From an uncultured Pseudanabaenaceae cyanobacterium (GTDB lineage Bacteria; Cyanobacteriota; Cyanobacteriia; Pseudanabaenales; Pseudanabaenaceae): a stretch of DNA of 64,000 bases. The translations under genes and the position numbers were made by a program. Positions within the stretch are counted from its first letter, which is position 1. Every line of letters starts with the position of its first letter. The notes below the pieces were generated by a model. It was not told the origin of the DNA. It worked only from the letters and a program-made list of their open reading frames with translations, and did not search any database. The stretch covers positions 1 through 64,000 of the forward strand of contig CALGKB010000009.1 of the NCBI GenBank assembly GCA_937927915.1, read 5' to 3'. Of the stretch, positions 53,342 through 58,250 are shown in pieces.

Positions 53342-54412
53342 CTAATCCTTAAGCACACCTTGGGCGAATGTAGTTTCAATTTCCTGCAACAATTGTTCTT
53401 GCCCCCACTGGGCGTAGAGATGACTGACGATGGCACTGGCACCTGCCCCCACGCCCTCCTTCACAAAACCCTCCTCATAACAGCGCAACTGGGGATACTG
53501 ACTATTGCGGAAATGCAACTCACTACAGACTAGAGGTATGCCCAACTCTGTCGCCAACTCTGCCACACCACAACTGGGGTCATCGATGACCCACCGTGTC
53601 GTAGCCACCACAAACCGATCGGGTTGCCATGGCAGTCCATAATACTGCGCCAACTGCTGCGCCAAGACATAAACCGCCACCATCTGACTGCCACCCCCCA
53701 ACAGTACCCCCCCCTTAGCCCCGATCATCATCCCTGCCACTACCGGTTGCATGGGGTCACCGACAGCAGCCACGATCGAGAGGGGGTTATCCGTACATTC
53801 TGCCCTGGCTAAACCCTGTTGCACTACCTCCCACTTCTGCTCATGGTTACAGATGGGATGGGAACTGCTGACCTTTGTGCGTGCCTCGATGCCCAAAGCC
53901 GTGAGGACAGCCAACGCCGTAGTTGTGCCCCCCGCTACACATTCACTCAGGAGGAGGTAGGGATAATCCAGGCTCAGTTTTTTCCCCCACTCTAAACCCT
54001 GCTGCAATAACCTCTCCACCGTTGCCAAATCCTGGGCACTACCCGTAGTCAGACACCTGGCAGGGGCACCGCCGAGATTAATAACAGGCACAGTAGGCGA
54101 TCGGGGTAAGCCACTGTCAAAGATATAAAGAGGTAGCCCTAACCCCCCTACCACCGCTCTGGTAATCACCACTGGGGAAGCCCCCGCCATGAGAGGAGGG
54201 AGAGGAAAGTCCAAGTTTTTACCCCTGTAGAGGAACTCCCCATCCGCGATCGCTGTAGTTTGCCGACTGGCAGGAGTAGCCCCCGCCGCTGAAATCCCGT
54301 CCATCAGACAGGTGGCAGTAAAGCCCAACACCAGGACAAAAGCAGGTTTTAGTCCTCGATACCGTTGCAGCCACCCCTGGGCACGATCGCCGCCACTGAC
54401 AACCCTGATCAT
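53342..54412 (-). CDS. CobT-like nicotinate-nucleotide phosphoribosyltransferase
   Basis: A 356-residue protein of the CobT-like family found in archaea and cyanobacteria. CobT activates the lower-ligand base of cobamides using nicotinate mononucleotide. Visible marks are LLSECVAGGTTTALAVL and VGDPMQPVVAGMMIGA, both family blocks with phosphate-binding Gly. It begins at the pnp stop (TAATG, one-base overlap), so it is co-transcribed with pnp. No cobalamin riboswitch precedes it. Cyanobacteria usually make pseudocobalamin with adenine, so the substrate may differ from dimethylbenzimidazole; this is inference. Confidence 0.8.
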   Translation of the reverse strand: MIRVVSGGDRAQGWLQRYRGLKPAFVLVLGFTATCLMDGISAAGATPASRQTTAIADGEFLYRGKNLDFPLPPLMAGASPVVITRAVVGGLGLPLYIFDSGLPRSPTVPVINLGGAPARCLTTGSAQDLATVERLLQQGLEWGKKLSLDYPYLLLSECVAGGTTTALAVLTALGIEARTKVSSSHPICNHEQKWEVVQQGLARAECTDNPLSIVAAVGDPMQPVVAGMMIGAKGGVLLGGGSQMVAVYVLAQQLAQYYGLPWQPDRFVVATTRWVIDDPSCGVAELATELGIPLVCSELHFRNSQYPQLRCYEEGFVKEGVGAGASAIVSHLYAQWGQEQLLQEIETTFAQGVLKD

Positions 54413-56550
54413 TAGAGGGCATTTGCTTGGGCTTGGGCAGCCTCTTCCGGATGGATACCCAACCTGGTCAGGTTAAACCGCCCCTTTTGGTCGATCTCCC
54501 GCACCTTGACCACAATATTGTCCCCCACATCGATGACATCTTCTACACGGGCAACCCGATTCTCCGACAGCTGGGAGATATGCACCATCCCTTCTTTACC
54601 AGGCAAAAACTCCACAAACGCCCCAATCGGAATAATCCTGGTCACCTTGCCGAGGAAGACATCCCCCACCGTAATTTTGCGGGTCATGGACTCAATCATC
54701 AGCTGGGCTTTGCGTGCCCCCTCGCGGCTGGTAGAAGCGATCGTGACTGTACCATCATCACTGATGTCAATTTTTGCCCCTGTCTCCTCAATGATGCCCT
54801 TGATATTTTTGCCCCCAGGACCAATCACCAAGCCAATTTGATCGGGATTGATCTTCATAGTGGTCAGACGGGGTGCGTAGGGAGACAGTTCAGGACGGGG
54901 TTTCGGTAAAGTTTGCAACATCTTGTCCAGGATAAACAACCGCCCTGCCCGCGCTTGGTAAATCGCCTCCTTGAGAGTCTGCAGGGAGATATTGGTGATC
55001 TTCATATCCATCTGCAGGGCAGTAATACCCGTATCTGTCCCCGCCACCTTAAAGTCCATATCCCCTAGGAAGTCTTCAATGCCCTGGATGTCCGTCAGAA
55101 TGCGCACTTCATCCCCCTCTTGCACTAAGCCCATCGCCACCCCTGACACAGGCTTCAACAGAGGAACACCTGCATCCATCAACGCGAGGGTAGAGGCACA
55201 CACAGACCCCATAGAAGTAGAACCATTGGAGGACAGCACCTCCGACACCACCCGCAACACATAGGGGAAATCTTTCTCCGAGGGAATCACAGGCACCAGG
55301 GCACGTTCTGCCAGCGCTCCATGCCCCACCTCCCGCCGACCAGGCGATCGTAAAGGTTTGACTTCCCCTACGGAGTAAGGTGGCATATTGTAGTGGTGGA
55401 GATAGCGTTTTTTCTCTTCCACATAGAGTTCGTCGGACATATCCTGGGCATCCTCACTTGTCCCCAAGGTTGCCACAGACAACACCTGGGTCAGACCCCG
55501 ATTAAACAAGGCGCTGCCATGCACCCTGGGCAATACCCCTACCTCACAGGTAATGGGACGAATTTCATCTAGCCTGCGCCCATCAATACGGATGTTTTGC
55601 TCGATCACCTGGCGGCGCATTAGCTTCTTCGTCAACTCCTTGAAGGTGGCATTAAACACATCGCCACTGATGGCACGGAAGGGATGGTCCTCTGGCAATG
55701 CCTCGATCGCTAATTTCACATCTTCTTTGATGGCATCAAGTTGGGCATCTCTGACCAGACGGTCTTTTTCACAACTGGCAATCACTGCCTGTACCCGATC
55801 GGTGGCTTTTTCCGCCATGAACTGTTCAAAATCCGTATAGGCATTGGGAGGAGGCGTTAAATCAGGGGGTTCAATCCCTAACTCTGCCATAATCCGCTGC
55901 TGTGCCTTTACCAATTCCTCCACTGCCTCGTAGCCAAACTCGATCGCTTCGATCATGTCCTGTTCGGGGAGTTGGTTTGCCCCTGCTTCCACCATGATTA
56001 CCCCCTCTGGCGTACCCGCTACAACGAGGTCAAGGTCGCCGGACTCAATTTCCGCAAACGTGGGGTTGATAATAAACTCGTCCTGGTGCAGTCCTACCCG
56101 TACCCCCGCCATTGGTCCCTTGAAGGGCAATTTTGCTAGCCAACAAGCCACAGAAGCTCCTGTTACCGCCAAGACATCCGCCGGCACCTTTTCATCCAGA
56201 GATAGAGTAGTAGCCACCACTTGAATTTCCTCCCGCACCCAGCTAGGGAACAGGGGACGCAAAGGGCGGTCAATCAAACGACAGGTCAAAATGGCTTTCT
56301 CTGGGGGTTTCCCTTCCCGCTTCAAGAAGCCCCCTGGAATCCGTCCAGCAGCATAGAGCCGTTCTTCGTAATCCACCACGAGGGGGACAAAATCAATACC
56401 TTCCCGCACTTCCCCCTTAGTTGCCGTCACCAATACCGCCGTATCACCGCACTGGATTAGCACACATCCGCCCGCCTGGGGGGCAAACTTGTTGATAAAC
56501 AGCTTGATCTCTCTGCCAAAAAAGGGGATAGTTTTCTCTATAGCACTCAT
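54412..56550 (-). CDS. pnp: Polyribonucleotide nucleotidyltransferase (PNPase)
   Basis: A phosphorolytic 3'-5' exoribonuclease of 712 residues. Two RNase PH domains ([22 protein letters not shown]..., and the active one with [21 protein letters not shown]) are joined by a helical domain. Then come KH ([21 protein letters not shown]) and S1 ([33 protein letters not shown]). Length and order are normal. It is the first gene of pnp-cobT. The leader carries inverted repeats. Confidence 0.97.
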
Positions 56551-56630: not shown

Positions 56631-56717
56631 TGCTAAATCTCCTACCTAGGACGTATGATTTGCATAGGCAAGCAAAGGAAGGGGCACCCCGCAATAGATT
56701 TATATGCCAGGAATTTG

Positions 56718-56928
56718 ATGACACTTGCTGCCCCAGTGCCTCCTGAGGAGATAGAAAATAAAACTATCCATCATTTTACCCCCTATATTGCCCCCTGACA
56801 ATTGGCATAAATCCTTTAACAGCACCAAATTTCAAAAACTTTCACTCCCAGAGTACCGAGAATGGTTGGCATCTTGGTTACTTAAGTTATTGCGCGTCCT
56901 GAAACCCACAGCATCGGTGTACATTTAT
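56718..56928 (+). pseudogene. Remnant of a DNA (N6-adenine/N4-cytosine) methyltransferase gene
   Basis: Two frames carry pieces of one protein. From ATG 56718: MTLAAPVPPEEIENKTIHHF then TPYIAP and TGA at 56796, matching the start of cyanobacterial DNA methyltransferases (ENKTI followed by the acidic region before motif IV). In the next frame, from 56788: PPDNWHKSFNSTKFQKLSLP then EYREWLASWLLKLLRVLKPT and ASVYIY. This matches the region after motif IV (DPPYN..KSFN..KF, then EYxxWLxxWL....LKPxASIYI). Motif IV itself now reads LPPD instead of DPPY. A deletion of about 20 residues and a frameshift explain both. The remnant ends where FkbM-like sequence begins. Confidence 0.65.
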
Positions 56929-57873
56929 GAGTTCTATCCTAAGAAAATAGCAGCGCAAATTGACTATTTGCAACGGGTCAAGAGCAGTATTGGCAAAGTA
57001 AATCTGCAGTATAATGAGCGTCATTATGGGGTAGGGGGGAATATGGCATATACACTCAAGGGCAGTCATGTGGGGATTACGTTTGCTGGTCCTCAAGGTA
57101 GTCCCTTGTCACTGCAGTTGTTTTTAGATGGTAGGGAGTTTACGCAGAAGTTGATGCTAACCTGCTTTAGCAAGGGCAAACTTTATGAGCCAGAAGTTTC
57201 GCGGTTATTTTTAGCGTTTTTAACAGAGGGAGATGTAGTAATTGATGTGGGTGCCCATGTGGGCTATTTCTCCCTGCTAGCGGCAACTTTGGTGGGTAAT
57301 TCAGGTAGGGTGATTGCCTCTGAGATGTGCAGAGATAATATTATGCGCTTGTTCTACCACTGCCAACTCAACTCACTGCCCAATATCCAAATCGTGGAAG
57401 GAGCGATCGGTAATTGTCAGCAGGAGGTTAGTTTTTATGTCAATCAAGATAACGATGGCGGTCACGCCCTCTGGGATGTAGGTAAGCACCCCTACAATCA
57501 AAAAAGTGCCAGTAATCCTGTGCAAAAAAGGGTGACTATGCGGACTTTGGATAGCATTACTAGAGAGTTAAATATAGATAGGATTAAATTAATAAAGATG
57601 GATGTGGAGGGAGCAGAGCCTTTGGTATTAGAGGGAGGAAAAACAACGATCGTTAACTGTAAGCCCCCCTTTGTTATCTGTGAGATCAATAAATTTGCCC
57701 TGCAACAGATGGGCTATGACCCCATGATTGTGCGCCATTTCTTTTCCGACCTGGGCTATGATAGTTATTTAATTACCGATCGATTATTACCTCTGCCGGC
57801 GGGGGAAAACTATGGGCAGGGTTTGTATAATTTGCTGTTTGCTCGCGGGGATATAGCTAAAGATTTACTTTGA
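56917..57873 (+). CDS. FkbM family methyltransferase, 5' end fused to a methyltransferase remnant
   Basis: An SAM-dependent methyltransferase domain of the FkbM type: VIDVGAHVGYFSLLAATLVGNSGRV (motif I, GxHxG-like), NIQIVEGAIGN, and IKLIKMDVEGAEPLVLEGG. It is probably an O-methyltransferase for a sugar, lipid or polyketide-like product; the substrate is unknown. The frame is open from 56755 but the first about 47 codons after TTG 56788 are DNA methyltransferase debris. I suggest the in-frame GTG at 56917 (before YIYEFYPKK) as start, but no ribosome-binding site supports it, so the gene may have lost its own 5' end. Its tail overlaps a decayed minus-strand gene. Confidence 0.6.
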   Translation: MYIYEFYPKKIAAQIDYLQRVKSSIGKVNLQYNERHYGVGGNMAYTLKGSHVGITFAGPQGSPLSLQLFLDGREFTQKLMLTCFSKGKLYEPEVSRLFLAFLTEGDVVIDVGAHVGYFSLLAATLVGNSGRVIASEMCRDNIMRLFYHCQLNSLPNIQIVEGAIGNCQQEVSFYVNQDNDGGHALWDVGKHPYNQKSASNPVQKRVTMRTLDSITRELNIDRIKLIKMDVEGAEPLVLEGGKTTIVNCKPPFVICEINKFALQQMGYDPMIVRHFFSDLGYDSYLITDRLLPLPAGENYGQGLYNLLFARGDIAKDLL

Positions 57874-58250
57874 GCAGCGGTAGGGCTTGGGTAATAATTA
57901 AATTCGCCACCTCTTCTGCATCCTACTGCCCCCTTGCTACTTCTAGGCAGGCTTGGTAAGGGCATTGGGCAATGCTTCCTTTGCTGAGGTAGTGCTCCTG
58001 GTGTTTGTAGAGACTTCCCAGGCTTTGGTCTTCTGTTTTTCCACTATTTTTAACAGGATGACAGCATAACTAATGATGTTGTTGATCTTGTCCTCTTTGC
58101 TCATTTCTTCCAGTACAGGGACCAGTTGGAGGAAGGCGTTGATCCCGTGCTCAGACCTATTGTTCCATACTTCGACTGCTGTGTTAACGCTCGGGCATAA
58201 GACAACACGTATACCATTGATTGACAGATTTCTATGGTGATCAAAGGAGG
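57857..58250 (-). pseudogene. Decayed gene of unknown family
   Basis: Read on the minus strand from about 58250: SYPSFDHHRNLSINGIRVVL then CPSVNTAVEVWNNRSEHGIN, AFLQLVPVLEEMSKEDKINN and IISYAVILLKIVEKQ. Near 58040 the sense continues in another frame as GKTEDQSLGSLYKHQEHYLS then KGSIAQCPYQACLEVARGQ, a TAG, and DAEEVANLIITQALPLLK before the last stop at 57857. There is no start codon at the front. The pieces read like ordinary helical protein, and the frameshift plus internal stop indicate decay. I do not recognise the family. Confidence 0.45.

What the first reader, a model, noticed from the sequence alone, without database searches (positions are those of the whole stretch)
56718..57873. Chimeric reading frame: DNA methyltransferase remnant fused in frame to an FkbM methyltransferase
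The open frame beginning near 56755 encodes residues of a DNA amino-methyltransferase (from just after motif IV to the LKPTASVYIY strand) and then, without a stop, an FkbM-type O-methyltransferase. The 5' piece of the same DNA methyltransferase is readable in another frame from ATG 56718. Motif IV has changed from DPPY to LPPD. This looks like a deletion that joined two unrelated methyltransferases, leaving the FkbM gene with a foreign 5' end and no clear start codon. It marks a lost modification gene and possibly a new fusion protein.
Basis: partly seen in the sequence, partly recalled or inferred. Interest (0 to 1): 0.72.

Follow-up and report, generated by a model that had tools for sequence, protein, structure and literature searches.

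The report
Dead restriction-modification operon before FkbM gene
The odd 'chimera' is the wreck of a small bacterial DNA-defence operon (a DNA methyltransferase plus its partner restriction enzyme) that decayed by deletions just upstream of a normal FkbM methyltransferase gene, so it is an ordinary genomic fossil and not a new fusion protein.

Summary
An open frame, 56755-57870, runs from a DNA methyltransferase fragment into an FkbM methyltransferase, and more of the 5' end of the same DNA methyltransferase is readable in other frames. The intact relative is a methyltransferase gene followed immediately by a HincII-like restriction endonuclease gene. One intact copy lies elsewhere in this genome (contig C4), and others occur in cyanobacteria and many other phyla. 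The window keeps, in order: MTase residues ~13-49 in two frames, MTase residues 70-114, then (after ~1.25 kb lost) the last ~30 residues of the endonuclease, with a frameshift, down to its own stop codon at 57012. FkbM starts 28 nt after that stop, at ATG 57043. That ATG aligns with the starts of the FkbM genes beside pnp in both same-genus genomes, and it has a strong Shine-Dalgarno sequence (-9.8 kcal/mol; other in-frame starts down to 57120, -4.5 or weaker). The in-frame 'fusion' is therefore most likely an accident of decay upstream of an intact FkbM gene. Low interest; the relic is a new example of a familiar phenomenon.

The parts
56666..56698 (+). MTase relic, extreme N-terminus: RQAKEGAPRNR (family ...KERAPRNRTIT)
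   Evidence: Frameshift-aware alignment to the intact MTase of this genome; weak hit of the family HMM in this frame
56693..56698 (+). Deletion junction 1 (AATAGA; ATAGA shared by both readings, compatible with microhomology). About 29 bp lost, frame shifts
   Evidence: N and I codons are 30 nt apart in the intact gene and 1 nt apart here (sequence; alignment). The ancestral sequence is not known, so the microhomology is inferred
56694..56774 (+). MTase relic: IDLYARNLMTLAAPVPPEEIENKTIHH
   Evidence: BLASTP E 1e-7 to intact MTase residues 23-49
56775..56790 (+). Deletion junction 2: 16 nt where the intact gene has 60 nt, so net -44 nt and frameshift; removes the approach to motif IV and its Asp
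56791..56928 (+). MTase relic: PPDNWHKSFN...LKPTASVYIY (motif IV to following strand)
   Evidence: 69% identity over 45 aa to the intact MTase; family HMM E 8e-13; dN 0.20, dS 1.89
56925..56929 (+). Deletion junction 3: rest of MTase and most of the endonuclease lost
   Evidence: The two flanking points are 1250 bp apart in the intact C4 copy and 3 nt apart here
56929..56982 (+). Endonuclease relic: EFYPK-(3 aa missing)-KIAAQIDYLQRVK
   Evidence: BLASTP E 7e-5; frameshift-aware score 79 for the whole tail, null maximum 42 in 399
56985..57014 (+). Endonuclease relic after a frameshift: QYWQSKSAV and its stop codon TAA (57012-57014)
   Evidence: alignment and frame; family ends HWENKSE* / YWEKKPEI*
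57043..57873 (+). Intact FkbM-family methyltransferase gene, 276 aa, start ATG 57043
   Evidence: TIGR01444 97.5 bits; start aligns with same-genus orthologues; Shine-Dalgarno -9.8 kcal/mol
54412..56550 (-). Polynucleotide phosphorylase gene (pnp), divergent left neighbour, conserved next to FkbM in both same-genus genomes
   Evidence: gene name from sequence (own knowledge)

Best explanation
A type II restriction-modification operon (N6/N4 DNA methyltransferase gene followed by an overlapping HincII-like endonuclease gene) once lay between pnp and FkbM. It was inactivated by at least three deletions and a frameshift, leaving ~350 nt of fossil sequence. The fossil MTase and endonuclease pieces keep their old frames. 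By chance, one of these is in register with FkbM, so a single open frame spans all three. FkbM is translated from its own ATG at 57043. Shown: identity and order of the pieces, the missing segments, the relic endonuclease stop, the conserved FkbM start. Inferred: that it was once active; that the related intact R-M copy elsewhere in this genome made its loss harmless; that no protein is made from the relic.
For: All pieces are collinear with the intact M-R operon of the same genome (C4) and with its relatives: of 80 endonuclease loci from many phyla, 46 show an M gene just upstream, overlapping or within 4 bp. Endonuclease tail score 79, null mean 23, sd 4, maximum 42. In the two same-genus genomes pnp and FkbM are only about 130-137 nt apart, against 492 nt here, and FkbM begins at the aligned Met, with frames open only 3 codons further. 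ATG 57043 Shine-Dalgarno -9.8 kcal/mol against +3.6 for TTG 56788.
Against: No transcript or protein data. No relative was found with the intact operon at this locus, so arrival by insertion (rather than loss in the two sister genomes) is inferred. The two same-genus FkbM genes themselves have no Shine-Dalgarno pairing, so a Shine-Dalgarno is not required for a start in this genus. The pieces are short; the extreme N-terminal one alone would not be significant.
Confidence: 0.94

Rival explanations
1. A real new fusion protein: the MTase/endonuclease remnant is translated as an ~85-residue N-terminal extension of FkbM.
For: The frame is open for 96 codons upstream of ATG 57043, and a TTG at 56788 could start it.
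Against: No ribosome-binding site at TTG 56788 (+3.6 kcal/mol) and a very strong one at ATG 57043. No FkbM relative found shares the extension. The remnant lacks all catalytic parts of both enzymes.
Confidence: 0.03
2. A single deletion fused an orphan DNA methyltransferase directly to FkbM, with no restriction gene involved.
For: Solitary MTases of the same family are common in cyanobacteria (170 of 390 genomes hit; several without a partner endonuclease).
Against: The segment 56929-57014 matches the endonuclease C-terminus through to its stop codon, in the right order. The MTase part alone needs two further frameshifting deletions.
Confidence: 0.02
3. The frameshifts and gaps are assembly errors in an otherwise intact operon.
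For: The genome is a 13-contig assembly, so small errors are possible.
Against: About 1.25 kb is missing at one junction and tens of bases at two others, while the neighbouring genes are intact. The only other MTase match in this genome is the C4 copy.
Confidence: 0.01

Closest known systems
Type II restriction-modification operon with N6_N4 (beta-class) MTase and HincII-like endonuclease (intact copy in this genome, C4: about 571.9-573.6 kb)
   Same: Gene order, MTase sequence (69% over 45 aa), endonuclease C-terminus and its stop
   Different: Window copy is a fossil with most of both genes deleted
Decayed restriction-modification systems and orphan methyltransferases (e.g. the patchy R-M distribution in Halobacteria, PMC6471742, title and abstract only)
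   Same: Loss of the restriction gene, often piecemeal; the same endonuclease is broken or fragmentary in five other cyanobacterial genomes
   Different: Here the methyltransferase has gone too
FkbM-family methyltransferase beside pnp in the same genus
   Same: Start codon, length and neighbour; 55-64% protein identity
   Different: Only this genome has relic DNA between pnp and FkbM

Membership tests
Type II R-M system (as ancestor of the relic) | DNA methyltransferase gene | tested here: met
   Three collinear MTase fragments
Type II R-M system (as ancestor of the relic) | Adjacent partner endonuclease gene | tested here: met
   C-terminal tail with stop codon, score 79 against null maximum 42
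Functional type II R-M system (present state) | Intact catalytic motifs of MTase and endonuclease | tested here: not met
   MTase residues beyond ~114 and endonuclease residues before ~190 are absent; motif IV DPPY reads LPPD
FkbM-family methyltransferase (57043-57873) | FkbM domain above the curated cut-off | tested here: met
   TIGR01444 97.5 bits against 37.7; PF05050 89 bits against 22.7
FkbM-family methyltransferase (57043-57873) | O-methyltransferase activity on a substrate | not testable with these tools
   Needs biochemistry
HincII-like endonuclease (intact C4 partner) | Similarity to HincII catalytic core | tested here: inconclusive
   Pfam Endonuc-HincII E 0.018, below the curated cut-off; PDB 1kc6 E 0.71

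The most novel reading that the evidence does not exclude
The fossil R-M sequence has been taken on as an expressed N-terminal extension of FkbM, a new protein made from parts of two dead DNA-defence genes.
Probability: 0.03. Interest if true: 0.45.

Novelty: new member of a known kind. Interest (0 to 1): 0.14.

Why it matters
It warns against annotating this open frame as a 361-residue fusion methyltransferase; the FkbM protein should start at ATG 57043. It also documents loss of a whole restriction-modification operon in a genome that keeps a related intact one. In that setting losing the methyltransferase need not be harmful if the other system has the same specificity, which was not shown.

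Tried and rejected
Target sequence of the R-M family from site avoidance: GGCC is strongly avoided in this genome (17 against 306 expected), which suggested a GGCC system. The avoidance is as strong in relatives without the endonuclease (G002, G014, G023) and absent in some that have it, and the pooled endonuclease-bearing loci show only 0.78; rejected. Six-base palindromes gave no clear candidate. A profile of the full-length endonuclease against the six-frame window found nothing, because the tail is split by a frameshift; the frameshift-aware alignment was needed. No plasmid record holds the endonuclease. dN/dS of FkbM against its orthologues could not be computed (silent sites saturated).

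Full report
Observation. The + strand frame is open from 56755 to 57870, with its first possible start at TTG 56788. Its residues 2-46 are a piece of an N6/N4 DNA methyltransferase: 69% identical over 45 residues to an intact 340-aa methyltransferase on contig C4 of the same genome, and recognised by the PADLOC type II MTase models. The C-terminal part is an FkbM methyltransferase well above curated cut-offs.

In the intact C4 copy the methyltransferase is followed, overlapping by 4 bp, by a 220-aa endonuclease with weak HincII similarity. Its C-terminus reads EFYPKEVGKIHERIDYFKRVKQHWENKSE-stop. The window reads EFYPK-KIAAQIDYLQRVK directly after the MTase fragment, and then, after a frameshift, QYWQSKSAV-stop. 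A frameshift-aware DNA-protein alignment of this segment scores 79; 399 random stretches of the window from both strands have mean 23, sd 4 and maximum 42. So the sequence between the MTase piece and FkbM is the end of the partner restriction gene, including its stop codon at 57012-57014.

The R-M family. Eleven of 390 sampled cyanobacterial genomes, this one included, carry a full-length or near full-length endonuclease, and five more carry broken or fragmentary copies. A scan of the genome collection gave 80 loci in many phyla, 46 of which show the MTase gene immediately upstream, overlapping or within 4 bp. The MTase family also exists without the endonuclease in many cyanobacteria. The signature EFYPKEIxKIxxRIxxFxxVKxxW at the endonuclease C-terminus is shared by nearly all.

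Anatomy of the relic. Alignment with the intact MTase gives: RQAKEGAPRNR at 56666-56698; a 29-bp loss at a junction where ATAGA serves both readings; IDLYARN...ENKTIHH at 56694-56774; a net 44-bp loss at 56775-56790 that removes the approach to motif IV; PPDNWHKSF...SVYIY at 56791-56928; then a jump that spans 1250 bp in the intact copy to the endonuclease tail at 56929-57014. 'LPPD' is thus the junction Leu, the conserved PP and a Y-to-D change. The divergence between the relic piece and the C4 copy is mostly silent (dN 0.20, dS 1.89; only 45 codons), which fits long purifying selection before a fairly recent decay and does not fit a recent duplication of the C4 copy.

FkbM. Both same-genus genomes have FkbM beside pnp in the divergent arrangement, with about 130-137 nt between them against 492 nt here. 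Their FkbM starts align with the ATG at window 57043, and their frames extend only 3 codons further upstream. At 57043 the Shine-Dalgarno pairing is -9.8 kcal/mol; the other in-frame candidates from 56755 to 57120 are -4.5 or weaker, and TTG 56788 is +3.6. The two same-genus genes have no such pairing at their own starts, so this is supporting evidence and the aligned start is the stronger argument. The 96-codon open extension is explained as about 64 codons of fossil coding sequence in their old frame, 12 codons before them, and about 20 codons open by accident after the frameshift. FkbM is therefore most likely an ordinary intact gene, and the fusion is only apparent.

How it probably arose. 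An R-M operon occupied the pnp-FkbM gap in this lineage (insertion inferred, since the two sister genomes lack it). It then decayed by deletions. Losing a methyltransferase before its endonuclease is normally harmful (established R-M biology); a single deletion that took both, or protection by the related C4 system if its specificity is the same, would avoid that. The specificity is not shown: avoidance of GGCC was tested and does not track the endonuclease.

Verdict: a genuine but ordinary pseudogene; annotation should start FkbM at 57043 and mark 56666-57014 as an R-M relic.

Noticed in passing
window 1-64000 and L146 (G000:C4): GGCC is almost absent (17 against 306 expected in the window; 3 against 99 in a second 20-kb stretch), as in several but not all relatives; it does not track this endonuclease.
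   Followed up: partly
G052, G057, G064, G110, G164 (L045-L052): The same HincII-like endonuclease is broken or fragmentary in five other cyanobacterial genomes (stop codons, split matches or frameshift); in G057 the upstream methyltransferase is still an intact open frame.
   Followed up: partly
window 57880-58250, - strand: 460 bp between FkbM and the next gene holds short minus-strand frames that look protein-like (MSKEDKINNIISYAVILLKIVEKQKTKAWE...), perhaps another relic; no Pfam hit and no second copy in the genome.
   Followed up: partly
L065-L144: The MTase plus HincII-like endonuclease operon is spread over many phyla (Chloroflexi, Planctomycetes, Patescibacteria, Acidobacteria, cyanobacteria), yet the endonuclease has no NCBIfam or PADLOC model match.
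   Followed up: no
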